A stretch of 26,522 nt of DNA from a virus. The notes beneath the pieces are model-generated. The model made no database searches. It had not been told where the DNA came from and worked only from the letters and a program-made list of their open reading frames with translations. Each line of letters begins with the position of its first letter. Within the stretch, counting starts at the first letter, position 1. The DNA is taken from positions 1 through 26,522 of IMG/VR virus record IMGVR_UViG_3300010885_045493. One strand, written 5' to 3'. This document shows positions 568-18,815 of this stretch, in pieces. Position numbers and translations under genes: made by a program.

Positions 568-2094
568 ATGCCCGAAAACATCATCCGCATCCAGTCTCAG
601 CCCGGCATCAAGCGCGACGGCACGATGCTGGAGGGCGACGCGTATGTTGATGGACAGTGGGTCCGCTTTCAACGCGGCCTACCCCGGAAAGTGGGCGGCT
701 ACCGCTCGATCAACAAGTTCCTGTCCGAAGTCAGCCGGGCCCTGAACGCCTACACGCAGAACGCCCTGACGTACGTACATTCCGGCTCGGCCAACAAGAT
801 TGAACGCTTCACGATTGACACGTCGAACAACACCTCGGTCATCACCGACCGCACCCCGGCGTCAGGTTTCACAACCGACGCCGCAAATGTCTGGCAGTTC
901 GACATTGACAGCGACAGCAGCCAGAACCTGATTGTCGCCCAAGTGGCGCCGAATGGTGTAAACATTGCCAACAGCACCGGCGGGCAGTTGTTCTCCGGCC
1001 CGGTCCTTGGCACATCCGCCCTGACGTCAATCGCCCTGCCTTCGGGCGGCAACTGCACGGGCGGCGTCGTGTCGCTGCACCCCTACACCTTCATTTACGG
1101 GACCAACGGCTACGTCGCGTGGTCGATCCCGGGCGACCCGACCAACTTCACCGGCTCCGGGTCTGGCAGCGCGAACGTCGCGTCGCAGAAACTGGTCAAG
1201 GCTCTGCCGCTGCGCGGCGGCCCGGGCAACTCCCCGTCTGGCCTGTTCTGGTCTGCTGACGCTGTTGTGCGAGCCACTTTCGTCGGCGGGTCGTCCGTCT
1301 TCCAGTTCGACACCATCAGCACCGAATCGTCGATCCTGTCACCCAACAGTGTCATCGAGTACGACGGCGTGTTCTATTGGTTGGGGGTTGACCGCTTCCT
1401 TATGTTCAACGGCGTGGTGCGCGAAGTGCCCAACGCCATGAACATCAACTGGTTCTTCGACGGCCTGAACGTCAACTACACGCAGAAGGTGTTCGCCATC
1501 AAGGTGCCGCGCTACGGCGAAATCTGGTGGTGCTACCCTCGCGGCGAGGCGACGGAGTGCAGCCACGCCGTCATCTACAACGTGCGCGAAAACACGTGGT
1601 ACGACTGCGAACTTCCCAACGGGGGGCGCAGCGCTGGTGTCTCGCCGTCCGTGTTCCGCAAGCCGCTGATGACCGGCGTGCAGGCCTCGGCCAGCGGCTA
1701 CAAGATGTGGGTCCACGAGACGGGTGTTGACGAGGTGGACGGCACGTCCACTCAGCCAATCTACTCGTTCTTCGAGACGGCTGAAATCTCTCTGCCCGTC
1801 TCCTCGCAAGTCAACAAGCAGCTTGAAGTCCTCTACATCGAGCCTGACTTCGTGCAGTCTGGCGACATGACCGTGTCGGTGCATGGCCGCTTCAACACCC
1901 GCTCGCCGGAAGTGGAGGGGCCGTACATGTCTTTCCCGGCGGTGGCGACAAGTCAAACAGATCAGGTCGTCTACCTTAAGGCACAACGCCGCCAGATGCG
2001 TTTCCGTTTCACGTCGAACGTGGTTGGCGGCGACTATCAGATGGGCCTGATTCTTGGGCACTTCCAGCCGGGCGATGGGACGATGATCGGATGA
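568..2094 (+). CDS. Phage stabilization / tail accessory protein (P22 gp10-like architecture)
   Basis: The 508-residue protein is rich in beta-prone segments and has no signal peptide or membrane segment. The N-terminal part ('PGIKRDG', 'YVDGQWVRFQRG', then 'GGYRS') and the central 'GEIWWCYPRG ... AVIYNVRENTWYD' resemble a family of podovirus virion proteins with a propeller-like body, comparable in layout to P22 gp10, the packaged-DNA stabilization protein. The role as head-tail plug or tail component is inferred from this resemblance and from its place directly before the probable ejection proteins. The ATG at 568 is followed by a continuous frame; no strong Shine-Dalgarno is visible. The stop overlaps the next start in ATGATCGGATGA, so the next gene is probably translationally coupled. 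Another tail tube or fibre-base function is possible. Confidence 0.6.
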   Translation: MPENIIRIQSQPGIKRDGTMLEGDAYVDGQWVRFQRGLPRKVGGYRSINKFLSEVSRALNAYTQNALTYVHSGSANKIERFTIDTSNNTSVITDRTPASGFTTDAANVWQFDIDSDSSQNLIVAQVAPNGVNIANSTGGQLFSGPVLGTSALTSIALPSGGNCTGGVVSLHPYTFIYGTNGYVAWSIPGDPTNFTGSGSGSANVASQKLVKALPLRGGPGNSPSGLFWSADAVVRATFVGGSSVFQFDTISTESSILSPNSVIEYDGVFYWLGVDRFLMFNGVVREVPNAMNINWFFDGLNVNYTQKVFAIKVPRYGEIWWCYPRGEATECSHAVIYNVRENTWYDCELPNGGRSAGVSPSVFRKPLMTGVQASASGYKMWVHETGVDEVDGTSTQPIYSFFETAEISLPVSSQVNKQLEVLYIEPDFVQSGDMTVSVHGRFNTRSPEVEGPYMSFPAVATSQTDQVVYLKAQRRQMRFRFTSNVVGGDYQMGLILGHFQPGDGTMIG

Positions 2095-2321
2095 TCAATC
2101 CTCGAAACATGACGCTGACAGACTGGGCAGATAGTGTTATCCTTGTCGCGAGTGATGCGTGGTCCTTCGGCAAACTGGAGGACGAAGCGCGTTGGCAAGA
2201 CTGGGCCATCGCCTTCGTGAGAGCCTCACCGTTCGCACAGCAGACGATCCCTGACCCTTACCTATTTGAGGACTGGCGCGACTGGGCCGAGCGCGTCTAC
2301 CCCCTGCTCGAGGTGCACTGA
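2091..2321 (+). CDS. Small conserved-type phage protein, unknown function
   Basis: This is a 76-residue acidic protein with many Trp residues in 'DW' pairs (TDWADS, WQDWAI, FEDWRDWAERVY). It has no membrane segment and no recognised domain. It starts at ATG 2091 inside the end of the preceding gene and ends one base into the next ATG, so it sits in a tight translational chain between two virion genes. This position suggests a small structural or assembly protein, but nothing in the sequence proves that. The coding call rests on the tight junctions on both sides and on the lack of any alternative frame in the interval. Confidence 0.7.
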   Translation: MINPRNMTLTDWADSVILVASDAWSFGKLEDEARWQDWAIAFVRASPFAQQTIPDPYLFEDWRDWAERVYPLLEVH

Positions 2322-4216
2322 TGCCTGACTTTGCCGTGAACGTCCCGGGCCTGAACTCGGCTCTTGCTGCGCAGGGCTTTGACGAGGACGCCGCAATTAA
2401 GGCCTACCAAGCCACGCCTGAAGGTCAGGCCGCGCTGCGAGCGCAAACTGAGCGCGACGCTCGACTGGCCGCGTACAAGGTTGCAAACCCCAACATCAGC
2501 GACTTTCAAGCGAACTTCTACTCCAAGACCCCCGAAGAGCAGGCGACGTTTCAAGCTATGTATCCCGGGATGGCCAAGGCCAACCTTAAGGGGCAACATT
2601 ACACCGGCGTGGCACCAGAAGCTGGCCAGTCAATGTTCGACTACATGTTGGCTCACAACGGCGCCACGCCCGAGACCAAGTTAAACGAAGGGCCGGGGCT
2701 CGGTCAGGCTTTGCTAAACGCCGCGTTGCTGGCGGGCGGCGGCGTGTTGACGGGTGGTGCTCTCAATGCCTTGATGGCGGGCGGAGGCCTTGGGGCCCTT
2801 TTCGGGGGCGGGGCAGCAGGGGCAACCGCTGCCGGTGCTCCGGCAACCGCTATTGGCGCTGGCACAAGCCTTGTCCCAACGATCACAGCAGCAGGTATGG
2901 TTCCCACCAGCACGGCGCTCGGAGCCGGAAGTGCAGCCGGAGCCCTTGGGGCAACGCTGGGGACGGCTGGCGCTACGGGAACGCTAGCCGCACTGGCCCC
3001 GGCGGCGGCAGGTGTTGGCACCTCCGTTGAAGAGGTTGTGATCATAGGGAAGCTGGCCGCCGCAGGCATGAGTGTCCCGCAAATTGCCGCCGCCGTCGGC
3101 CTCCCCGCGCTGGCGGTCAACAGTGTTCTGCATGGCTCGTTGGGTCTGGACGTTGCGCAGGGTGGGTCGGGTGGCGACCCTGTGAGCCAACCTACAGACG
3201 TTGAAGAGGTTGTCGTTAATGGGGTAAAGCCGACGCCTCCTCCGACACTCGTCCCGCCGGTCATCAATCCGTTCCAGCCCGGTTTGACCTCCACACCCAA
3301 CCCGACGCCAGACACTGCTGCCCCGGACGAACCGGAGGTCAGCGAACTTGAGGTGACGGCAGCAAAGCCGACGCCTCCTCCGACACTCGTCCCGCCGGTC
3401 ATCAATCCGTTCCAGCCCGGTTTGACCTCCACACCGAACCCGACACCGGACCCTGTTGCCCCGGACGAACCGGAGGTCAGCGAACTTGAAGTGGTTGCGC
3501 CCAAGACCGTTGACCTCCCGACACTCGTCCCGCCGATCATCGACCCGGGCCCGTTGACCTCCACACCGAACCCGACGCCAGACACTGCTGCCCCCGACAA
3601 AAAGCCGCCGGGCATGAGTTGGGAAGACTGGCTCAAACTTATCTTGACCGTTACCGGAGCAGGCGGTGGAGCGGCTGCAGGCGGCAAGAAAGGCCCCTCG
3701 ACCCTACCGCCGGGCGTCATGGACGCAGGCCAACCCGGCAGCACATCAAGCATCTTCCGCTCCACCCTGCCACCGCCGTCGGGGCCCTTCGCTAACATGT
3801 CGGCGCGCAACGTCAGCATGACGCCAGAGGAGTGGAAGACCTACGGGCAGCGTGGGCAAGTCGCCTTCCTGAACAGCACGCCGCAGCGCCCATCGGGCAT
3901 CATCGACAACAGCAAGCGCGTTGACGACACCAACATGGCCCCCGGCACTGGCTTCGCCCGGGGTGGCTTTGCTGTGCGCGGCCCCGGCACCGGGCGGAGC
4001 GACGACATCCCTGCACGCCTGAGCGACGGGGAGTACGTCGTTGACGCAGAGACCGTGTCCCTGCTCGGTGACGGCTCGACCAAAGCTGGCGCGAGCAAGC
4101 TCGACCAGTTCCGTGTAAACATCCGCAAGCACAAGGGCAGGAAGCTGGCCAAGGGTGCGTTCAGCGTGGACGCCAAGAAACCCGAAGCCTACCTGCGTGG
4201 AGGACAAGCCCGATGA
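2321..4216 (+). CDS. Repeat-containing phage structural/internal virion protein
   Basis: The 631-residue protein has four visible regions. Residues 1-120 are hydrophilic. Residues ~125-290 are a long Gly/Ala-rich hydrophobic stretch. Residues ~295-430 hold a Pro/Thr-rich region built from a 46-residue repeat (138 bp period, two near-identical copies and one shortened copy). The C-terminal ~90 residues contain 'GTGRSDDIPARLSDGEYVV' and 'RKHKGRKLAKG'. This C-terminal module (IPA-LSDGEYVV followed by a basic segment) is common at the ends of phage internal or tail-associated proteins. The function is unknown; an internal or ejected virion role is inferred from the neighbours. Short motifs such as 'VEEVVIIG' and 'VEEVVVNG' recur before the repeats. 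The next gene starts at 4213, overlapping the stop by four bases. Confidence 0.65.
   Translation: MPDFAVNVPGLNSALAAQGFDEDAAIKAYQATPEGQAALRAQTERDARLAAYKVANPNISDFQANFYSKTPEEQATFQAMYPGMAKANLKGQHYTGVAPEAGQSMFDYMLAHNGATPETKLNEGPGLGQALLNAALLAGGGVLTGGALNALMAGGGLGALFGGGAAGATAAGAPATAIGAGTSLVPTITAAGMVPTSTALGAGSAAGALGATLGTAGATGTLAALAPAAAGVGTSVEEVVIIGKLAAAGMSVPQIAAAVGLPALAVNSVLHGSLGLDVAQGGSGGDPVSQPTDVEEVVVNGVKPTPPPTLVPPVINPFQPGLTSTPNPTPDTAAPDEPEVSELEVTAAKPTPPPTLVPPVINPFQPGLTSTPNPTPDPVAPDEPEVSELEVVAPKTVDLPTLVPPIIDPGPLTSTPNPTPDTAAPDKKPPGMSWEDWLKLILTVTGAGGGAAAGGKKGPSTLPPGVMDAGQPGSTSSIFRSTLPPPSGPFANMSARNVSMTPEEWKTYGQRGQVAFLNSTPQRPSGIIDNSKRVDDTNMAPGTGFARGGFAVRGPGTGRSDDIPARLSDGEYVVDAETVSLLGDGSTKAGASKLDQFRVNIRKHKGRKLAKGAFSVDAKKPEAYLRGGQAR
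3227..3601 (+). repeat. 138-bp in-frame tandem repeat, about 2.7 copies
   Basis: Units start at 3227, 3365 and 3503, each beginning with an AAG (Lys) codon. Units 1 and 2 are nearly identical in DNA and encode a 46-residue Pro/Thr-rich block with 'TLVPPVINPFQPG', 'LTSTPNPTPD' and 'EPEVSELEV'. Unit 3 is diverged and shortened but keeps 'TLVPPIIDP' and 'LTSTPNPTPDTAAPD'. The period is a multiple of three, so copy-number change would alter linker length without breaking the frame. Confidence 0.9.
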
Positions 4217-5283
4217 CCCTAGACCCCGCGCTCACCTCGACGACCCCCGCCGGAGGGGGCGACAACGGGCTGACGACCTTCCTGAACAGTGGCAACGCGG
4301 CGGTACAGCCGAAGGCCTACACCAAGGAAAACGTCCTTCCCGACTGGTACAACAACTACACTCAGCAGTTGCTGTCAAATCAGGCTGCGACGATGAACGC
4401 GCCGTACCTGACGTACCAAGGCCCTCGGGTTGCGGGCTTCACGCCCCAACAGCAGCAGGGCATGCAGATGGTAGGGCAGGCGGCCACCGCCTACCAGCCC
4501 GGACTCAACACGGCGCAGCAGGCTACGCAGGACCTGATGAAGGCTCCGGGCGGCCTCGAGGCTGCGCAGCCCTACCTGACCAACGCGGGGCAGACCAGCG
4601 CCTCGCAGGTGCAGCAGTACATGAACCCCTATCAGGAGGCCGTGGTTGACCGCATCGGAGACCTCGGCGCTCGCACCCTGCGCGAAAAGCTGCTGCCCGA
4701 GATCAGCGACAACTTCATCAAGTCCGGTCAGTTCGGCGGGTCGAGGCAGGCTGAGATGATCGGTCGCGGCCTGCGCGACACCATGGAGGGTATCTCCGCG
4801 CAGCAGGCCCAAGCCCTGTCGTCGGGCTACACCGGCGCCCTAACCGCCGCCGGAAACGACATGTCCCGTTTCGCTGGTCTCAGCCAGACGGCTGGCGCAC
4901 TCCAACAAGGCGACATCACTTCCGGGCGTGCGAACGCGGCGCAACTGGCCAGCATGGCAGGGCAGCAGCAGGCTCTCGGCCTGACGGGAGCCAACGCCGT
5001 GCAGCAGGTCGGTGCCCTGCAGCAGGCACAAGACCAAAAAAACCTCGACGTAGGCTATCAGGACTTCATCAACGAGCGGGAAGACAAGCAGAAGCGCATC
5101 AACGACGCCGCCGCGACGCTCAAGGCGGTGTCTGGTTCGGTGCCGACGGCGGAGACTTACCGTGGGTACGAGCCGCAGGGCAGTCCCGTCGGTCCCGGGC
5201 CTACGACCGGGCAGAACATCCTAACCGGCCTCGGCCTGAGCACTGCGGCGATCAAGGCTCTCAAAGACGCCGGGATTATCTAG
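4213..5283 (+). CDS. Probable internal/ejection virion protein (356 aa)
   Basis: This Gln/Ala-rich, largely helical protein has a central segment, 'YMNPYQEAVVDRI' followed by 'SGQFGGSRQAEM' and 'RDTMEGISAQQ', that is characteristic of a widespread podovirus structural family. It has no signal peptide or membrane helix. Its position (before a 468-residue protein and a very long virion protein) mirrors the three-gene ejection cassettes of podoviruses, in which the proteins are packaged in the head and leave with the DNA. That role is inferred. The ATG at 4213 overlaps the upstream TGA, so translation is likely coupled. The C terminus (INDAAATLKAVSG and a Gly/Pro linker) looks like a flexible tail. 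Confidence 0.65.
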   Translation: MTLDPALTSTTPAGGGDNGLTTFLNSGNAAVQPKAYTKENVLPDWYNNYTQQLLSNQAATMNAPYLTYQGPRVAGFTPQQQQGMQMVGQAATAYQPGLNTAQQATQDLMKAPGGLEAAQPYLTNAGQTSASQVQQYMNPYQEAVVDRIGDLGARTLREKLLPEISDNFIKSGQFGGSRQAEMIGRGLRDTMEGISAQQAQALSSGYTGALTAAGNDMSRFAGLSQTAGALQQGDITSGRANAAQLASMAGQQQALGLTGANAVQQVGALQQAQDQKNLDVGYQDFINEREDKQKRINDAAATLKAVSGSVPTAETYRGYEPQGSPVGPGPTTGQNILTGLGLSTAAIKALKDAGII

Positions 5284-12248: not shown

Positions 12249-13618
12249 GGCTTTTTCCGCCGGTTCATGGCGTCCAGAAGCACGTCCTGCAGGCTGCGCT
12301 TGGTGCGCAGGCGCTCAAGGATAAGCTCGTCCACGGTGTTCTTGGCGATGATCCGGAGGATGAAGACCGGACGGTCAATCCCTGCCTGCTTCTGACGCAT
12401 GGGGCCGATGCGCTCAATGATCTGATCGTGCTCCTCGCTGTTCCAGTTCGGCGTGAAGAAAGCGAGAATGTTGCCGCCCTTGGCGAGGTTCAGGCCGTGA
12501 CCCGCCGACTTGGGGTGCGCCAGCAGGATTTCGATCTTGCCGTCGTTCCACTCCCTGATCGTCTTGGGGTTAGTGTCCAGCACCCGCGCCTTGGGGAAGG
12601 CCGCCTTGAGGCGTTCGAGGTCGCTCTTGAACTGGTAGGCAACCAAAACAGGTGCACCGGAGGCCTCCTCGATGATGCTCTCCAGCACCTCGATCTTTGC
12701 GCGGTGAAGCTCCAGCCACCCCTTGCCCTCGTCCGTGTAGATGGCGCCTGACGCCGCCTGTTGCAGCTTGCCGGTCAGCACCCCACCGTTGGCGGCAGTG
12801 ACGTTCAGGTCGTCCGGCAGGTCCGCGTAGAAGGCGGTCTCGAGTTCGTCGTACACATTGCGGGCGCTGGGCGGCAGGTCCACGACGAGGTCGTTGATGA
12901 TGGGTGCGTCCACCGGCAACCCGGAGACCGTCAGGCAGATGTCCTTCAGCTTGCCCTCGATCTCCTTCTGAGAGTGTGAGTGCGGCTTCAAACTGTGCCC
13001 ATCCCAGCTCTTGGCGAACCACCTCGACTCGAAAGCCGCAAACGTCTTTCCGAGGCGCAGGCCCCTGTCGAGGAACCACGTCTGCCCCCACAGGTCCGTA
13101 AGGCCGTTCGGGGACGGCGTGCCAGTCAAACCGATGAAGCGCTGAACCTCTTGGTGCGCGACGCGGGACAGGGCCTTGGCGCGCTGCGAACCCTGCCGCG
13201 TGCGGTAACCCTTGAGGCGTGTAAACTCATCCGCGACGACCGTCTTGAAGGGCCACCCCTCGAGGTACTCCGTGACCAGCCACTGCAGGTTCTCGTAGTT
13301 AACCGTGTAGATGTGCGCCTTGGCCTTCAGGGCCCGCTCGCGCTCCTTGATCGGCCCAGCGATGACGCCGACCTTGAGGTGCTCGAAGTTCGACCACTTG
13401 TCGATCTCGTCCGGCCACGTGGAGCGCGCCACGCGAAGCGGCGCCAGCACCAGCACGGGGTATACGTCCTCCTCGACGAGAGACAGGTGGTCGAGGGCCA
13501 GCAAAGTCGAGGCCGTCTTGCCCGTGCCCATGCCCGCCCACACGGCACAGCGGCGGTTGTTCTGAATCCAATCGGTGATGTCGTTCTGGTAGTCGTGGGG
13601 GATGAAGGTCGGCTTCAT
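12245..13618 (-). CDS. SNF2/DEAD-type helicase
   Basis: The product is a 457-residue superfamily 2 ATPase. Visible motifs are Walker A 'AGMGTGKT' (28-35), motif Ia 'VLVLAPLRV', motif II 'VVADEFT' (a D-E-F variant of DEAH), motif III 'LTGTPSPNG' (164-172), and late motifs V/VI 'GHGLNLAKGG' and 'IERIGPMRQKQ'. This set defines the compact phage SNF2-type helicases that usually sit next to a VRR-NUC gene. The start is ATG 13618, which overlaps the TGA of the nuclease gene (ATGA); the frame stays open farther upstream, but that part is the nuclease gene in another frame. Its role is probably DNA remodelling or branch processing in replication and recombination. Its stop overlaps the convergent plus-strand gene. 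Confidence 0.9.
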   Translation of the reverse strand: MKPTFIPHDYQNDITDWIQNNRRCAVWAGMGTGKTASTLLALDHLSLVEEDVYPVLVLAPLRVARSTWPDEIDKWSNFEHLKVGVIAGPIKERERALKAKAHIYTVNYENLQWLVTEYLEGWPFKTVVADEFTRLKGYRTRQGSQRAKALSRVAHQEVQRFIGLTGTPSPNGLTDLWGQTWFLDRGLRLGKTFAAFESRWFAKSWDGHSLKPHSHSQKEIEGKLKDICLTVSGLPVDAPIINDLVVDLPPSARNVYDELETAFYADLPDDLNVTAANGGVLTGKLQQAASGAIYTDEGKGWLELHRAKIEVLESIIEEASGAPVLVAYQFKSDLERLKAAFPKARVLDTNPKTIREWNDGKIEILLAHPKSAGHGLNLAKGGNILAFFTPNWNSEEHDQIIERIGPMRQKQAGIDRPVFILRIIAKNTVDELILERLRTKRSLQDVLLDAMNRRKKP

Positions 13619-13896
13619 TGCGCGGCCTCCGCCACGAACGCGTCTGCCTCCTCTAGGGAAGACACGACGCGTACCCGGAAGCCGGATGCGCGCAGACGAG
13701 CGTGCTCGGCACTCTGCAGGGGTGTCAGGCGCCCGGTGGCGCTCTTGACCTCCACGAACCACACGTGCGGCCCGTCCCACCACACGAACAGGTCCGGCGC
13801 GCCGCGACGTCCCGTCCACTCTAGCTTGCGGTGGTGGCCGCCAGCCTCGGTGATGCGCTTGCGCAGATAAACTTGAACCTTACCCTCTGGGGTCAC
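13615..13896 (-). CDS. VRR-NUC domain nuclease
   Basis: This 93-residue protein is a minimal VRR-NUC nuclease. The catalytic pattern is present: an N-terminal helix with 'TPEGKVQVYLRKR', 'RGAPD' (31-35) and 'FVEVKSATGRL' (47-57) followed by Gln 61, giving the D-(E-x-K)-Q array of the PD-(D/E)XK fold. Known relatives act as Holliday-junction or structure-specific nucleases. The start is GTG at 13896, five bases past the polymerase stop; AGGAAAGGG just upstream is a good ribosome site. It overlaps the helicase gene by four bases, and the pair is likely a functional unit that handles branched DNA made by the polymerase. Confidence 0.9.
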   Translation of the reverse strand: MTPEGKVQVYLRKRITEAGGHHRKLEWTGRRGAPDLFVWWDGPHVWFVEVKSATGRLTPLQSAEHARLRASGFRVRVVSSLEEADAFVAEAAQ

Positions 13897-13899
13897 ACA

Positions 13900-15813
13900 T
13901 CACCCTTTCCTGTATCGGTGCGTCTCGAAGCCAGCCGCCGCGAGGGGCAGACCGACCGTCCACTGGGAGGTCTGCGACATGAGGGCCGCAAGCCCCTCGG
14001 CGGTGAACGACGGGTCGTCTGGGGTCTCGCAGATAATCTCGTCGTGCACGTGCAGGACGGGATTGTAGCCAGCCTTCTCGGCCAGCACGAGGCCCGCCGC
14101 CAGCACGTCCCGCGCTGCGGCCTGCGTGGCGTTCTCCACCAGCTTTCCGCCGTAGGTGACTACGGTAACCCACTGCTTGGTGAAGTCCTGCCCGTCGTAC
14201 ACAATGCGACCCCCGTCGTCGATGCGCGCGTTGGGGTAGCACAGGCTGCGGCGACCCGACGGCAAGAAACACCGCAGCCACGAGCCATCCATGCGGTACG
14301 TCAACAGACCCGCCGTGAACGTCCGCCCGGGCACGGCCAGAGCCCGGCGCACGGCCTCCTCGGTCAGGTACCACAGGTTCTTGATGGAGGAGTGCGCTCC
14401 GCGCCACGCCATGACGATCTCGTGCGCCGTGTAGTCGGGCAGAACAATGCCGTAGTTCGCGCCCATGGTTAGGAAGGCCCCTCGGCTTCCTTGATAGCCG
14501 CAGTTGTGAACCACGAGCGCGCCGCTATCCGTGAGGATCGTAAACCTGTTGCGCGGCCCCGCATGTGCAATGTCGTAGACAGGCCTCCAGTGCGTCGAGT
14601 CGCTGTTGCAGGTCCCTGACCTTTCGGACGTTATTCCGGTTGGCGCGTCGAGTGATGAACCGAAGGTTTCCGGGCTCGTAGCCTCTGTTGACGTCGATCC
14701 GGTCAAGTTCGAGTTCGGGTTGGTCCCAACCGTCAAGCCCAACGAGATGAGAGAGGTATGCCGCTCTGTCCTTTCGCCACGGTTCGTATACGTAGATGCC
14801 GCGCCCCCCGTAACTGGGGAAGCCCGCGTCGTTCGGGTTGTGGCAGCGGTTGATGGCAGCGGATATGCGGTTGCAGAGCCGACGTCGATGGGTGTCGTCC
14901 GGGCAGACGTCGGCATATCGGAACCAGTCTTTCCGCCGTTTGCCCCCGGCTTTCTTGGCGCAGTTGTTACACCGTGTGCTGGCACCCCGGCGAAGGTTGC
15001 TGACTGCAACGGAGTGTGGAGCCGCGCCACAAGAGCACTTAACGACCACGCTTCGCAGTCCACCCCTCGTGCCGAGATCAAAACCAACGACCTCAAGCTC
15101 GCCGAACCTGTCGCCGACGCTAGGTCTCGGAAAGTCTGGCAGGAAGCGACCGTCTTCGCCGACCGCCAAATCTCTCCGCACAGCACCTCGTGGTCGGGCG
15201 TTATCTCCACCCCGTCCAGTAGCATCACCTTTCGGTTTCCCCGAGTTATAACCCCCTGATGCTTCACCCACGTTTGTCCATCCCATAGCCGGTGATAAAC
15301 GGTAATGTCCTTAATAGCCACCGGACCATGCTGGGTCAACACTTGGGTATCAGGGCCGAAGCAGGCCAACTCCATCACCTTACCAATCTGTCGCTGGTCC
15401 GGTGTCACGTCCTCTGGCTTGATGTTGTACGAGCGGGCGTAGGCCAACTTGTACAGGTCGTGGCCCTCGCCTTGGTCGTAGGCCGCAAAGGCGTCCAGCT
15501 TCCACTGCTCTCCGGCCAGAAAGGCCAGCATGCGCCCCTCGATGTTGGACAGGTCGGCGATGACCAGCTTTCGCCCCTCTGGTGCCACAATGCAGCCACG
15601 AATGGCACTGGTGCAAAGCTCCATGACGTTGTCGAAGAGCAAGTCCTCGACGCCCAGCTTCATGGCCTCGATGCCGTTCTCGATGGCGTCGTTCTTAAGC
15701 GTCGGTCGCGGCAGATTTTGGGGCTGGAAAATGCGCCCTGAGTTGGAGACGATGCGCCCGTTCGCCATAAAGCGGTTGCGCGGGCCAGCGTTCACGATGT
15801 CATACGTCCGCAT
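13900..15813 (-). CDS. Family A DNA polymerase, C-terminal half, beginning with a C-intein and containing a second intein
   Basis: The product has 637 residues from ATG 15813. This start is preferred over the in-frame ATG at 15858, because GCGGGGG lies 8 bases upstream and the longer form would lie inside the endonuclease gene. Residues 1-24 are a C-intein ending in Ser-Asn; the extein then resumes at Ser 25 with 'SGRIFQPQNLPRP'. Motif A is 'LVIADLSNIEGR' (Asp 87). Motif B begins 'RQIGKVMELA' (Lys 145), is broken by a second intein (151-437), and resumes 'CGYQGSRGAF ... YG'. Motif C is 'HVHDEI' (Asp 591). All palm and finger residues are present, but the exonuclease and thumb are in the upstream gene. 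After both splicing events the polymerase would be about 645 residues, normal for this family. Confidence 0.93.
   Translation of the reverse strand: MRTYDIVNAGPRNRFMANGRIVSNSGRIFQPQNLPRPTLKNDAIENGIEAMKLGVEDLLFDNVMELCTSAIRGCIVAPEGRKLVIADLSNIEGRMLAFLAGEQWKLDAFAAYDQGEGHDLYKLAYARSYNIKPEDVTPDQRQIGKVMELACFGPDTQVLTQHGPVAIKDITVYHRLWDGQTWVKHQGVITRGNRKVMLLDGVEITPDHEVLCGEIWRSAKTVASCQTFRDLASATGSASLRSLVLISARGVDCEAWSLSALVARLHTPLQSATFAGVPAHGVTTAPRKPGANGGKTGSDMPTSARTTPIDVGSATAYPLPSTAATTRTTRASPVTGGAASTYTNRGERTERHTSLISLGLTVGTNPNSNLTGSTSTEATSPETFGSSLDAPTGITSERSGTCNSDSTHWRPVYDIAHAGPRNRFTILTDSGALVVHNCGYQGSRGAFLTMGANYGIVLPDYTAHEIVMAWRGAHSSIKNLWYLTEEAVRRALAVPGRTFTAGLLTYRMDGSWLRCFLPSGRRSLCYPNARIDDGGRIVYDGQDFTKQWVTVVTYGGKLVENATQAAARDVLAAGLVLAEKAGYNPVLHVHDEIICETPDDPSFTAEGLAALMSQTSQWTVGLPLAAAGFETHRYRKG
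14503..15363 (-). other. Intein 2 in polymerase motif B, contiguous in frame (287 aa)
   Basis: It begins with Cys (TGC, 15363-15361) after 'KVMELA' and ends with Asn (AAC, 14505-14503) before Cys+1 of 'CGYQGSRGAF'. Block A is 'CFGPDTQVL', block B 'ITPDHEV' has the Thr-x-x-His pattern, block F is 'VYDIAHAGPRNRF', and block G ends 'VVHN'. The Hint parts are roughly the first 90 and last 30 residues. The ~170 residues between them in this frame are Ser/Thr/Pro-rich and show no domain, while another frame of the same DNA encodes an HNH endonuclease. The insertion point is the conserved finger helix of family A polymerases. Confidence 0.88.
14525..15286 (-). CDS. HNH homing endonuclease nested out of frame within intein 2
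   Basis: The frame is open for 253 residues, in a frame shifted from the polymerase. Recognisable protein starts near residue 54: 'VGDRFGELEVVG', then four Cys in a zinc-ribbon pattern (84, 86, 106, 109), 'RISAAINRCHNPND', 'YGGRGIYVYEPW' (159-170), 'LELDRIDVNRGYEPGNLRF' (192-210) and 'RANRNN'. This is the AP2/HNH type of phage homing endonuclease. The first ~50 residues overlap the Hint N-part and are probably not translated; GTG 15181 and TTG 15169 (with GGAGA just before it) are better start candidates than ATG 15286, which has no ribosome site. The stop TAG lies inside the intein's block F coding region. Expression from within the polymerase message is inferred. Confidence 0.8.
   Translation of the reverse strand: MGWTNVGEASGGYNSGKPKGDATGRGGDNARPRGAVRRDLAVGEDGRFLPDFPRPSVGDRFGELEVVGFDLGTRGGLRSVVVKCSCGAAPHSVAVSNLRRGASTRCNNCAKKAGGKRRKDWFRYADVCPDDTHRRRLCNRISAAINRCHNPNDAGFPSYGGRGIYVYEPWRKDRAAYLSHLVGLDGWDQPELELDRIDVNRGYEPGNLRFITRRANRNNVRKVRDLQQRLDALEACLRHCTCGAAQQVYDPHG
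15742..15813 (-). other. C-intein (IntC) of the split intein 1, 24 residues
   Basis: It reads M-R-T-Y-D-I-V-N-A-G-P-R-N-R-F and closes 'NGRIVSN' before Ser+1. It holds block F (YDI...GPRNRF) and block G only. It aligns end to end with the last 24 residues expected of a Hint fold and lacks the extra ~12 N-terminal residues that usual natural C-inteins carry. The residue before the terminal Asn is Ser, not the usual His. It closely resembles the end of intein 2 (YDI.(N/H)AGPRNRF). Confidence 0.85.
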
Positions 15814-16717
15814 TGGCGAGCCCCCGCTTGGCCGCCGCAGCCGCGCGGCGCCGCGCACCCACCTCGGCGCGGCGCTCTGGCGTCCAATAGGCTATGAGCG
15901 CCACCTTCTGGTGCCGCTTCCGCTTATCGTGGTCAATGCGCGCCCGTGCAGCGGCGAGTTGTGCCTGCCGTTCCGCACGCTGCTCGTCGGGCAGTTGAGC
16001 GTTAAAGGCCACCATGCCGTCGGAAATCTTGGCGCTCACGTCCGCGACTTGTTCAGGAGTGCGCGCGTTCCATAGATGCTTCGCCCGCACGCGGGCCGCA
16101 CGCTTGGCTTTCAACTTTTCAGACGGCGTGCGCTCCGCAAAGCGTTTCAAAAGCCGTTCACTCTGCGCCTTGCGGTCCTCGTCGGTCCACGCCTTGGGGT
16201 TTACGTTTTTGCGTTCGGCTTTCAAGGCTAGACGCAGGTTCCGACGCGCTATGCGGTACGCCTCGCGCGGGTTGGCCAAGCGCCAGTCTCTAGCCAGTGC
16301 CGGGAGTTCGGCGGCGTGTGCCTGATGCGCTTCACTCTCGCGGCAGCCCCGGGAAAGCGCCGCGCGGTAGGCGGCTTCCCACGCCGGGTCGCGGAGAAGC
16401 TCTGCGGCGGCCGAAGTTCCCGCAGGGCCGTCAAACGCCCCTTCCGGCGACAAGTTGTACGGGTTGAGCAGCGCCGCAATCTCTTCGATCTCGGCGACAA
16501 AAGCCTCCTCAAGCGTGTCGCATGCCCGCAAGACCTCGACGGTTAACGCCTGCGCGCCGTACTTGCGGATAGCCGCGCAGAATGGGTGGTGCGCGCCCTT
16601 GGCCGCGCGCCGCACATGCTGCCCCCAGCGAACCTGTAACGGTTGAGACGTGAGACCGACGTAGCTGCGCCCGCTAGGACTGGTCAGCCGGTAAATCGTG
16701 TAGCGTTCCCTCTCCAT
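15800..16717 (-). CDS. Free-standing GIY-YIG homing endonuclease between the two polymerase halves
   Basis: The 305-residue protein has an N-terminal GIY-YIG domain: 'YTIYRL' (GIY variant, 7-9), 'SYVGLT' (YIG variant, 19-21), Arg 30 and His 34 in 'VRWGQHV', Glu 76 in 'EAFVAEIEEI', and Asn 88 in 'NPYNLSPEGA'. The C-terminal two thirds are basic and helical, with repeated Trp-Thr/Asn-x-E/A segments ('HLWNARTPEQVADVSAKI', 'AYWTPERRAEVGARRRAA') that resemble NUMOD3-type DNA-binding modules. It starts at ATG 16717 with AGAGAGG eight bases upstream, overlapping the end of the N-polymerase gene by 34 bases; its TGA overlaps the C-polymerase start by 14 bases. It presumably cuts the intein-free polymerase allele and spreads the split element. 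Confidence 0.92.
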   Translation of the reverse strand: MERERYTIYRLTSPSGRSYVGLTSQPLQVRWGQHVRRAAKGAHHPFCAAIRKYGAQALTVEVLRACDTLEEAFVAEIEEIAALLNPYNLSPEGAFDGPAGTSAAAELLRDPAWEAAYRAALSRGCRESEAHQAHAAELPALARDWRLANPREAYRIARRNLRLALKAERKNVNPKAWTDEDRKAQSERLLKRFAERTPSEKLKAKRAARVRAKHLWNARTPEQVADVSAKISDGMVAFNAQLPDEQRAERQAQLAAARARIDHDKRKRHQKVALIAYWTPERRAEVGARRRAAAAAKRGLANADV

Positions 16718-17928
16718 AGGGGTAGCCCTCTCTGCTTTGCCTCTCCGAGAGTAACATGTTCTGAAGTTGAAACATACACTTTATGTTCAGCCGTCGCACA
16801 AACCCCGTCGTGCGTAATCACAGGTTTGTCGCCGGAAAACACCACGCCTTCGTGTCGAACCCACGACTCGCCGTCCCACACCAAGTCGTCGGTCGTGACA
16901 TCCTCTATCGGTCGCTCCAAGATGCGCCCGGTGTCATCTTTGACCCGGACGAGTGTGCCTTCCGCCAAGCAGAAACGCCCCGTGCGCGACGCGCCGCAGA
17001 ACTGCAGGGTTCCGCGCAGCCGCCCGTCGGGCGACACGCTGTCGCAAAGGGCCTTGTACTTGGCGGGGCTGGTAGCCGACGCCGCCGCGCGGTTCTCGAG
17101 CACCAGCCGTGCGAGTTCCGGCAAGTCTTCCTCCTTGAGCGCCTCCGCCACCGTGCTCGCGCGCAGGTCCGGCAACTCCACGCCCAGCGACGACAGCAGG
17201 TAGCGCGTCTTCTCCCTCTGCGTGGACTTCGTGAGGGCGCCGCCGGTCGCCTCGGACAATTCCTCGGACAGGCGCGCAAAAGTCTTCCGGGCGGCTTCCT
17301 GCGCCGCCTCGGCCAGATGCAGGTCCACGGCCACGCCTCGGGCGTTGATGGTCTGGTCCAGCAGCCACAGGTCGCGCTCGCGCTCCGTGAGGTTCCAGTC
17401 CGGCATGGCCTTCCGGCACTCGCGCATGGAGATGACGTCTAGGCGTGCGTACTCAACAAACTCCGCCCACTCCTTGGGGTGCGTCTCTCGCGTGGCGCGC
17501 GACAGCTTGCGGTTCTTGGCGAGGGGCTTGGTGAGCAGTTGGATCAAGGCCTGACCGCGCTTGCTCTTGGCCTTGTCCTCTGGGATGCCGAGCACTTCGC
17601 ACAGCTTGGACAGCTTGCCGGGCAGGCTGTGCGCCAAGGCCTGAACCATGGTGTCGTGGACCTTGTGCACAGGCACGTCGAGGCCGTGTTTAGACAGGAT
17701 GGTGCGGTCAAAGGCGCTGTTGTGGATGACGATGCTGTCGGCGCTTTGCACGGCCTCTGCGAGGCGGGCCATCGGCCCCTCTGCGCCCAGAGTGCAGTCC
17801 AGCACCTCTACGGGCCCGTCGTCCTGCGCCATGGCAATCAGCAGGATTTCCGACCCCTCGGCATAGGCGTGCGCGCCGCAGGTGATAGGCACAGTGCTGT
17901 ACGTCTCAAGGTCGAGAAAAAGCATCAT
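16684..17928 (-). CDS. Family A DNA polymerase, N-terminal half (3'-5' exonuclease and thumb) fused to an N-intein
   Basis: The product has 414 residues. Exonuclease motifs are Exo I 'FLDLE' (Asp 6, Glu 8), Exo II 'IHNSAFD' (Asn 70, Asp 74) and Exo III 'YARLD' (Tyr 160, Asp 164), a DEDDy proofreading site. The polymerase thumb follows, up to 'GTLQFCGASRTGRF' (306-319), which in family A enzymes leads directly into the 'FQPQNLPR' motif. Instead, Cys 320 starts an intein and the gene stops 95 residues later. The sequence downstream of the stop has further in-frame stops (TAA 16545, TAG 16251, TAG 16230), so readthrough cannot rejoin the polymerase. The start is one of two adjacent ATGs (17928, 17925); AGGA lies upstream after a strong hairpin. 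Confidence 0.92.
   Translation of the reverse strand: MMLFLDLETYSTVPITCGAHAYAEGSEILLIAMAQDDGPVEVLDCTLGAEGPMARLAEAVQSADSIVIHNSAFDRTILSKHGLDVPVHKVHDTMVQALAHSLPGKLSKLCEVLGIPEDKAKSKRGQALIQLLTKPLAKNRKLSRATRETHPKEWAEFVEYARLDVISMRECRKAMPDWNLTERERDLWLLDQTINARGVAVDLHLAEAAQEAARKTFARLSEELSEATGGALTKSTQREKTRYLLSSLGVELPDLRASTVAEALKEEDLPELARLVLENRAAASATSPAKYKALCDSVSPDGRLRGTLQFCGASRTGRFCLAEGTLVRVKDDTGRILERPIEDVTTDDLVWDGESWVRHEGVVFSGDKPVITHDGVCATAEHKVYVSTSEHVTLGEAKQRGLPLWRGNATRFTG
16687..16971 (-). other. N-intein (IntN) of the split intein 1, 95 residues
   Basis: It starts at Cys (16971-16969) directly after 'TGRF'. Block A is 'CLAEGTLVRVKD' and block B 'ATAEHKVYV' with the Thr-x-x-His signature. The middle 'VWDGESWVRHEGVV' parallels 'LWDGQTWVKHQGVI' of intein 2, so the two Hint domains are paralogues. 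The last ~15 residues overlap the start of the GIY-YIG gene and may be a non-conserved tail. Cys1 and block B are the residues needed for the first splicing step. Confidence 0.88.
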
Positions 17929-17945
17929 CGTGTCCTGAAGGGGGT

Positions 17946-17986
17946 GCGCCCCCCGCCGGGAGACCTGACTTCTCGGCGGGGGGCGC
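17946..17986. terminator. Strong GC hairpin between the GapR-like gene and the polymerase
   Basis: A perfect 13-bp inverted repeat (GCGCCCCCCGCCG at 17946-17958 and its complement at 17974-17986) encloses a 15-base loop that can pair a little further. It fills nearly all of the 66-base gap between the two genes. No T-run follows it on either strand, so it is not a standard intrinsic terminator. It may act as an attenuator, an RNA-processing or stability element, or a bidirectional stem; in the minus-strand message it lies just before the polymerase ribosome site. Confidence 0.5.
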
Positions 17987-17994
17987 GGGGCTGC

Positions 17995-18258
17995 CTAGAC
18001 GAGGTCCAGACAGCCGAGGGCGGAGGCGTAAAGCTCGAGGATAGCCTTGTCCTCGAGGACCTTGGTGCGGTCCTTGCGACGCAGGGCGACGAGGCGACGC
18101 ATGGACTTCACGTCGAAGCCAGCCGCCTTCGCCTCGGCGTACACACTCTTGGCCTGCTCGCCAATCGCGATACGCTCGTCGTCGAGGGTCTCCACGCGCT
18201 CCATCAGAGCCTTAAGCTCCTGCGCAGCGACGGGCGCGTTGTGCCCGGCACCAGCCAT
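17995..18258 (-). CDS. GapR-like / DUF2312 DNA-binding protein
   Basis: This is an 87-residue protein. 'LKALMERVETLDDERIAIG' and 'VYAEAKAAGFDVKSMRRLV' followed by 'LRRKDRTK' and 'EDKAILELYASALG' match the DUF2312 family, whose cellular member GapR in Caulobacter is a nucleoid-associated protein that binds overtwisted AT-rich DNA ahead of replication forks. The start is ATG 18258, overlapping the stop of the SSB-like gene (ATGA). The frame is open upstream of it, but that extension is the SSB-like gene out of frame. As part of this replication operon it may help the phage fork or compete with the host protein; both are inference. The family is typical of alphaproteobacteria and their phages. 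Confidence 0.9.
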   Translation of the reverse strand: MAGAGHNAPVAAQELKALMERVETLDDERIAIGEQAKSVYAEAKAAGFDVKSMRRLVALRRKDRTKVLEDKAILELYASALGCLDLV

Positions 18259-18815
18259 CAGACGAAGTCCTGCGGTTCCACGGGAGCGCCAAACTCGGAC
18301 GCGGAGGCCGGAGTCCCGCCGCCGAAGCTCTCGCCGTGTGCCACGAACCGGACACCACGCAGGCCGCAGTTGATGCGACGGCCCCACTTGTTGTCCTGCG
18401 CGTAGATTTCCACCGACGCGTCCACGAAAGCGCCGCTGTAGATCAGGCCGTCAGCCGAAGTCGTCGGCAGGTTGGCGCTGTTCCACGCCGACGGCTTGAC
18501 CGTCGCGCTCCGCGAAGATAGGTGGAAGGCGTCTGCAAACCCTGCGTAGGGCTCGCCGTTCTTGTTGAGGTACGGGCCCTCAACGAAGGCGACCTTCTTG
18601 TCGGCAGTCAGGAGCTTCAGGACCGAAGGGGCCTTGTCGTTCCACTTGCCCGTGGCGGATGCCTGAACCGCGTTGCGGATTTCATCGACCTGCGGGTGGT
18701 TCGGGGGAATGATGAACTTCGCGCCGTACGCAGGCTCGCCGTCGCCAACAGCCTGCTTCTCGAAGATAGCCGGAAAGGCGATTGCCACATTCCGAATTAC
18801 AATTTGCACGCTCAT
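18258..18815 (-). CDS. ssDNA-binding protein, DUF2815 (Enc34-like) family
   Basis: The 185-residue protein has an OB-fold-like order of strands: 'IRNVAIAFPAIFEKQ', 'PAYGAKFIIPPNHPQ', 'FVEGPYLNKNGEPYAGF', and 'GAFVDASVEIYAQDNKWGR' with 'INCGLRGVRFVAHGE'. This pattern is the DUF2815 family of phage single-stranded DNA-binding proteins. The tail is Gly/Pro-rich with an acidic end (VEPQDFV), as in SSBs that recruit partners. The start at ATG 18815 has a clear AAAGGAA eight bases upstream. It is followed by the GapR-like gene with a four-base overlap and preceded by the nuclease gene. It most likely coats ssDNA for the polymerase and primase-helicase encoded nearby. Confidence 0.88.
   Translation of the reverse strand: MSVQIVIRNVAIAFPAIFEKQAVGDGEPAYGAKFIIPPNHPQVDEIRNAVQASATGKWNDKAPSVLKLLTADKKVAFVEGPYLNKNGEPYAGFADAFHLSSRSATVKPSAWNSANLPTTSADGLIYSGAFVDASVEIYAQDNKWGRRINCGLRGVRFVAHGESFGGGTPASASEFGAPVEPQDFV

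What the first reader, a model, noticed from the sequence alone, without database searches (positions are those of the whole stretch)
15742..16971. DNA polymerase gene fractured by a split intein with a GIY-YIG endonuclease gene in the gap
The exonuclease/thumb half ends 'TGRF' plus a 95-residue N-intein; the palm/finger half begins with a 24-residue C-intein, then 'SGRIFQPQNLPRP', the exact continuation of the family A polymerase motif. A complete GIY-YIG gene with its own ribosome site lies between, overlapping IntN by 34 bases and IntC by 14. The two polymerase parts share one frame but at least four stops (TGA 16686, TAA 16545, TAG 16251, TAG 16230) separate them, so only protein trans-splicing could give a full enzyme. 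Split inteins with free endonucleases ('fractured genes') are known from environmental phage sequences; a polymerase of this type with a GIY-YIG partner is, as far as I can judge, unusual.
Basis: partly seen in the sequence, partly recalled or inferred. Interest (0 to 1): 0.93.

Follow-up and report, generated by a model that had tools for sequence, protein, structure and literature searches.

The report
Split intein breaks phage DNA polymerase
A phage's DNA polymerase gene is cut in two by a mobile element (a split self-splicing protein with its own DNA-cutting enzyme gene in the gap), and a second intein in the same gene hides another DNA-cutting enzyme in a different reading frame; together they suggest how split inteins may arise.

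Summary
Window 17928..13903 (-) encodes a BPP-1/RW-type family A polymerase as two proteins. The first ends TGRF + 95-aa IntN; the second starts with a 24-aa IntC, then SGRIFQPQNLP. A 305-aa GIY-YIG gene lies between, overlapping by 34 and 14 nt. Ten in-frame stops separate the halves.
It is a real, mobile natural split intein. The same element sits in another phage lineage (found in two metagenomes) at 92-96% DNA identity, while the polymerase around it is only 63-69% identical, with sharp borders. Three more contigs carry diverged versions at the same site. dN/dS is low (IntN 0.03, IntC 0.10, GIY-YIG 0.23), the IntC start codon is kept, and IntN+IntC model as one Hint fold (Z 15).
This is a new variant of 'fractured genes'; a GIY-YIG partner is already known (AceL NrdHF). 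Splicing itself is untested.
Beyond the finding, the second intein of this gene is continuous and holds an HNH endonuclease out of frame. Across 112 related inteins no intact continuous intein has its HNH in frame. Continuous ones keep the host frame open (0 stops, about 5 expected); split ones have stops at the neutral rate.

The parts
16972..17928 (-). N-extein of the family A DNA polymerase (3'-5' exonuclease and thumb, 319 aa, ends TGRF)
   Evidence: PF01612 E 4.3e-6; phrog_17 DNA polymerase 1.9e-51; gapless alignment to BPP-1 and RW
16684..16971 (-). IntN, 95 aa plus stop TGA; C1, TAEH block B
   Evidence: 99% identical to L007; modelled as Hint half with pLDDT about 95
16726..16733 (-). 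Ribosome-site-like AGAGAGGG, 8 nt before the GIY-YIG ATG
   Evidence: read; the same sequence in L007
15800..16717 (-). GIY-YIG homing endonuclease gene (305 aa, with stop)
   Evidence: PF01541 1.4e-5, TIGR01453 5.4e-7, phrog_314 1.2e-11; relatives L007, L110, L111, L112
15821..15825 (-). G-rich ribosome-site-like stretch (GGGGG; GGAGG in L007), 7 nt before the IntC start codon
15742..15813 (-). IntC, 24 aa, MRTYDIVNAGPRNRFMANGRIVSN; start ATG here, GTG in L007
   Evidence: modelled IntC pLDDT 79-90
15364..15741 (-). C-extein part 1 (palm, motif A ADLSNIEGR, up to motif B QIGKVMELA), Ser+1
   Evidence: PF00476 5.7e-12 for the whole C-half
14503..15363 (-). Second, continuous intein (I2, 287 aa; ELA|CFGPDTQ..VVHN|CGYQG)
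   Evidence: matches to intein-bearing phage polymerases; Hint fold at 1-90 and 256-287, low-confidence insert 91-255
14525..15286 (-). HNH endonuclease ORF (longest reading 253 aa; true start uncertain) in another frame inside I2
   Evidence: phrog_374 HNH endonuclease 4.5e-31; frame offset checked
13900..14502 (-). C-extein part 2 (fingers/palm, motif C VHDE), 200 aa, with stop
   Evidence: phrog_17 1.4e-51 for the C-half

Best explanation
A natural class 1 split intein interrupts the polymerase at TGRF|SGRI. The two halves are made as separate proteins. IntN and the 24-residue IntC associate, fold into one Hint domain and splice in trans, using C1, the block B Thr/His, the terminal Asn and Ser+1, which joins the exonuclease/thumb half to the palm/finger half. 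A second intein in the C-half removes itself in cis. The free GIY-YIG gene in the gap, translated from its own ribosome site, cuts polymerase genes that lack the element, and repair copies the whole IntN-GIY-YIG-IntC cassette into them (homing). Shown here: anatomy, restored extein, shared fold, selection on all three parts, conserved independent IntC start, horizontal spread with sharp borders. Inferred: trans-splicing, endonuclease activity, and which DNA site is cut.
For: Gapless extein on joining. Cassette 92-96% identical between the window and L007 (contigs 3300044643_000612 and 3300034018_000646) against 63-69% for the flanking exteins, with borders at the intein ends plus about 18 nt left and 40 nt right. 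dN/dS 0.03, 0.23 and 0.10 for IntN, GIY-YIG and IntC. IntC start ATG in the window, GTG in L007, ATG in L110-L112, always 24 codons before the junction; a clear Shine-Dalgarno in L007, L110 and L112, weaker in the window and L111. GIY-YIG homologues in the same gap in L110, L111 and L112. The five inteins form one clade, 100/97. Read-through model: residues 1-90 and 387-410 form one Hint fold, Z 15.2, rmsd 2.4, 116 residues aligned to Mtu RecA intein, 14.8 to Npu DnaE. No Rfam intron.
Against: No splicing or cleavage experiment. The penultimate intein residue is Ser, not His, though DnaE split inteins also end ..SN (own knowledge). The window's ribosome site before IntC is weak (GGGGG) and L111 lacks a clear one. 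IntC is shorter than the 35-40 aa typical of natural split inteins (PMC10189870). IntN has no sequence match in the PDB.
Confidence: 0.9

Rival explanations
1. The halves work as a two-part polymerase held together by IntN/IntC without splicing, like the genes-in-pieces NrdA of phage Aeh1.
For: A free endonuclease inside a gene can leave two working subunits (known case, cited in PMC10448857).
Against: Only intein chemistry explains the strict conservation of C1, TxxH, the terminal Asn and Ser/Cys+1 in all five loci and the neighbouring family and dN/dS of 0.03 for IntN. Intein remnants would be expected to decay.
Confidence: 0.05
2. A group I intron carrying the GIY-YIG gene, removed at RNA level, leaving a continuous intein.
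For: GIY-YIG enzymes are often intron-encoded (TIGR01453 hit).
Against: No Rfam match at E up to 1 over 13500-18300. IntN has its own stop and IntC its own start 24 codons from the junction in all five loci, in L110 in a different frame from IntN.
Confidence: 0.02
3. Sequencing or assembly error, or a dying pseudogene.
For: Single contig from a metagenome; about 10 stops are what neutral sequence would have (10 seen, 9.1 expected).
Against: Identical architecture in three contigs and diverged versions in three more; low dN/dS in all three parts.
Confidence: 0.01
4. Stop read-through or programmed frameshift makes one long polypeptide.
For: IntN and IntC share a frame in the window.
Against: Ten stops; IntN and IntC lie in different frames in L110 and in nearly all HNH-type relatives.
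Confidence: 0.01

Closest known systems
AceL NrdHF split intein (Hoffmann et al. 2020, PMC7891396; PDB 6zgq)
   Same: Phage-like contig, fractured gene, natural split intein with an intervening GIY-YIG putative homing endonuclease; trans-splicing measured there; same fold as our model (Z 12.3).
   Different: Host gene is a ribonucleotide reductase beta subunit; class 3 mechanism (no nucleophile at position 1, 98 + 48 aa). Ours is class 1 (Cys1), 95 + 24 aa, in a family A polymerase.
Fractured genes / split inteins with free endonucleases (Dassa et al. 2009, doi 10.1093/nar/gkp095; not held, known from citations and memory)
   Same: Conserved phage replication-type gene broken by a split intein with a free-standing endonuclease gene in the gap.
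   Different: As recalled, the endonuclease family there is EDxHD (VSR-like); here GIY-YIG, or HNH at the neighbouring site.
gp41-1, NrdJ-1 and DnaE natural split inteins
   Same: Typical split position where endonuclease domains insert; Hint fold (Z 14.1, 13.3 and 14.8).
   Different: IntC about 35-40 aa is typical (PMC10189870); here 24 aa, and 25-26 aa in most HNH-type relatives.
ShiLan domain (Arsenault, Gosselin, Gogarten 2025, PMC11855218)
   Same: Mobile insertion in a phage gene, read through in the host frame, with an HNH endonuclease hidden out of frame, as in the second intein here.
   Different: ShiLan shows no intein or intron splicing domain; the second intein here has an intact Hint domain around the hidden HNH.

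Membership tests
Natural split intein (class 1) | Two separately encoded parts that together hold intein blocks A, B, F and G | tested here: met
   one Hint fold from both parts, Z 15.2
Natural split intein (class 1) | Cys/Ser at position 1, TxxH in block B, terminal Asn, Ser/Thr/Cys at +1 | tested here: met
   C1, TAEH, SN|S; invariant C1, T60, H63 over five loci
Natural split intein (class 1) | Independent translation of the C-part | tested here: met
   Start codon conserved as ATG/GTG; clear Shine-Dalgarno in three of five loci; not measured
Natural split intein (class 1) | Ligation of exteins in trans | not testable with these tools
   needs co-expression
Fractured gene (Dassa type) | Free-standing endonuclease gene between the intein halves of a conserved gene | tested here: met
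   GIY-YIG gene 16717..15803
Fractured gene (Dassa type) | Mobility: cassette spreads independently of its host gene | tested here: met
   92-96% against 63-69% identity with sharp borders
GIY-YIG homing endonuclease | GIY-YIG catalytic domain with conserved Tyr, Tyr, Arg, Glu | tested here: met
   PF01541 above cut-off; Y9, Y19, R30, E76, N88 invariant with L007 and Vibrio phage VP-1
GIY-YIG homing endonuclease | Cleaves the intein-less allele | not testable with these tools
   needs purified enzyme and an empty-site substrate
Group I intron | Conserved intron core | tested here: not met
   no Rfam hit at E up to 1

The most novel reading that the evidence does not exclude
In this family of phage polymerase inteins the homing endonuclease is as a rule captured out of frame with its own start codon. 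The host frame then has two fates: it stays open by overprinting (continuous intein with a spacer shaped by the hidden endonuclease) or it fills with stops once the C-part gains its own start (split intein). Split inteins would then arise as a by-product of out-of-frame endonuclease capture, and the window's gene shows both outcomes side by side.
Probability: 0.5. Interest if true: 0.82.

Novelty: new variant of a known kind. Interest (0 to 1): 0.66.

Why it matters
It adds a compact natural split intein (24-aa IntC) with close relatives, useful as a trans-splicing tool. More generally, it ties the origin of split inteins to a testable cause: an endonuclease gene inserted out of frame. The same gene carries a split intein at one catalytic motif and a continuous intein with a hidden endonuclease at another, so the two outcomes can be compared directly.

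Tried and rejected
Group I/II intron: Rfam search of 13500-18300 found nothing. PDB sequence search with IntN: no match. More GIY-YIG relatives by the enzyme itself: only the two near-identical contigs in viral contigs and none in genome contigs; the diverged ones came only through the C-half search. Foldseek on the models gave no E below 0.001, inteins on top; VIA-align gave the clear match. Held papers: no report of an intein with an out-of-frame endonuclease, but the library lacks most subscription journals, and Dassa 2009 could not be read. One clade for all split inteins: the free tree needs 3 changes; the AU test does not reject one clade (p 0.10), so the number of splitting events is open. 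Zero stops in 'cis' inteins is partly by definition; the argument rests on the contrast by site and on the gap between 0 and 4-27 with nothing between.

Full report
What is there. The window is a 26.5 kb IMG/VR virus contig with a BPP-1-like replication block: DUF2800, Enc34-type ssDNA-binding protein, GapR-like protein, polymerase, VRR-NUC, SNF2-type helicase. The polymerase is encoded as two proteins on the minus strand. The first is 319 aa of exonuclease/thumb ending TGRF plus a 95-aa IntN. The second opens with a 24-aa IntC, then SGRIFQPQNLPRP and the palm. A 305-aa GIY-YIG ORF overlaps the first by 34 nt and the second by 14 nt. Read through, the IntN frame has ten stops before IntC. Spliced, and with the second intein removed, the protein is 645 aa and aligns without gaps at both junctions with BPP-1, BcepC6B and RW; RW has the empty site TSRF|SGKVFQPQNLP.

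It is real and mobile. Two identical contigs from other metagenomes (L007 = L045) carry the same cassette in a polymerase only 52-65% identical in protein. DNA identity is 63% in the N-extein, 96% in IntN, 92% in the GIY-YIG gene, 94% in IntC and 69% in the C-extein. The jump falls at the intein ends, with about 18 and 40 nt of extra identity as expected from co-conversion. Between the two copies dN/dS is 0.03 (IntN), 0.10 (IntC, few changes) and 0.23 (GIY-YIG), so all three products are under selection. The enzyme's N-terminal domain keeps Y9, Y19, R30, H34, E76 and N88 across L007 and a Vibrio phage VP-1 homologue.

A small family. A search with the C-half found three more contigs at exactly the same codon, TGR[FYW]|C...N|S[GS]R: L110, L111 and L112, with GIY-YIG ORFs in the gap. 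In L112 the enzyme is cut down to 79 aa while both intein parts remain. The C-part always starts 24 codons before the junction with ATG or GTG; L007 (GGAGG), L110 (GGAGG) and L112 (AAGGAG) have clear ribosome sites, the window (GGGGG) and L111 weaker ones. In L110 IntN and IntC are in different frames. These facts exclude read-through, frameshift and assembly error. No intron model matches.

Fold. AlphaFold2 on the read-through cassette (a device to place both parts in one chain; not a natural protein) gives confident IntN (pLDDT about 95) and IntC (79-90) and nothing confident between. Together they match inteins over 116 residues: Mtu RecA Z 15.2 (rmsd 2.4), Npu DnaE 14.8, gp41-1 14.1, NrdJ-1 13.3, AceL NrdHF 12.3.

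The neighbours. At a position one or two codons away (TGRWGG|C...HN|SDxxNLQN) 34 distinct elements are split; 32 have a detectable HNH gene in the gap and 2 have none. IntC there is mostly 25-26 aa with a ribosome site. All site-a inteins form one clade (39 rows, 99/97), and the five GIY-YIG elements a clade inside it (100/97): the simplest reading is one split lineage in which the endonuclease was exchanged. One site-a member (L169) is continuous. L174 is split at a different site (motif B), carries a GIY-YIG (PF01541 1.2e-10) and sits next to a continuous HNH intein, which suggests a second, independent splitting.

The second intein. Window 15363..14503 is a continuous intein in polymerase motif B (GKVMELA|CGYQG) like those of Jerseyvirus, Dhillonvirus, Pseudomonas MR14 and others. 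The HNH ORF 15286..14525 (phrog_374, 4.5e-31) lies in another frame. The model has a confident Hint domain at residues 1-90 and 256-287, and residues 91-255, read from the overprinted part, are below 50. Of 66 continuous inteins in the set with a detectable HNH, none has it in the intein frame (41 in one other frame, 25 in the other). I shuffled synonymous codons of the endonuclease and counted stops in the intein frame. Continuous inteins: 0 seen, 5.4 expected on average, 49 of 64 with p below 0.01 (the window's own: 2.0 expected, p 0.04, weak because of its G+C). Split inteins: 14.7 seen, 14.6 expected. 'Continuous' is defined by an open frame, so the zero is partly built in; but the state follows the insertion site almost perfectly and nothing lies between 0 and 4 stops. 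Related sequences are not independent. In Jersey-like copies the HNH frame has dN/dS mostly 0.12-0.17 and the intein frame over the same stretch mostly 0.5-1.5. So the HNH is the selected product and the spacer need only stay free of stops.

Known and new. Split inteins with free endonucleases are known (Dassa 2009, cited). A GIY-YIG partner is known in AceL NrdHF, where trans-splicing was measured (PMC7891396). A hidden out-of-frame HNH in a phage gene insertion is known from the ShiLan domain, which has no splicing domain (PMC11855218). What I did not find described in the held library: this polymerase element and its family, natural IntC of 24-26 aa as a rule, and out-of-frame endonucleases as the rule in a whole intein family, with split and overprinted outcomes in one gene. 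About ten loci have both kinds in one polymerase (for example L062, L063, L069, L072, L079, L143).

Verdict. The finding is right, and ordinary in kind for specialists in fractured genes, but a good new variant. The wider pattern is the more interesting part and remains an inference on mechanism.

Noticed in passing
14525..15286 (-) inside 14503..15363 (-): HNH endonuclease ORF out of frame inside a continuous intein whose own frame stays open.
   Followed up: yes
L095 (Vibrio phage VP-1, MH363700.1) 1501..4843: Terminase large subunit with a continuous intein and an apparent atypically split intein (QST|CGIMFKTN... / ...VSHN|CSFLG) whose N-part runs in frame into a GIY-YIG enzyme; annotated as two terminase genes.
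   Followed up: partly
L089 (Sodalis phage SO-1) 1552..4740: Polymerase with nested HNH gene annotated as a self-splicing type I intron; the sequence reads as a continuous intein with an out-of-frame HNH.
   Followed up: partly
L174 4412..5502: Split intein at polymerase motif B with a GIY-YIG gene; a likely second origin of splitting.
   Followed up: partly
L077 5100..5506: Split intein with the endonuclease gene lost: IntN and IntC about 100 nt apart in different frames.
   Followed up: no
L181 (Spirabiliibacterium mucosae contig) 2732..4066: Split intein in a bacterial contig (probably a prophage); the 1056-nt gap holds two similar-looking ORFs (about 160 and 130 aa) that are not recognised endonucleases.
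   Followed up: no
L039 7337..8234: Motif B intein whose frames are broken (IntN, HNH and IntC do not line up as in its close relatives); error or decay.
   Followed up: no
L001 (Caulobacter phage RW) 4717..5634 and L094 (APSE-2) 3001..3918: Cultured phages with a continuous intein before motif C (GGK/SGK|CEN) and a hidden out-of-frame HNH, annotated only as DNA polymerase.
   Followed up: partly
17998..18258 (-): GapR-like DNA-binding protein (PF10073, 1.1e-24) encoded next to the phage polymerase.
   Followed up: no
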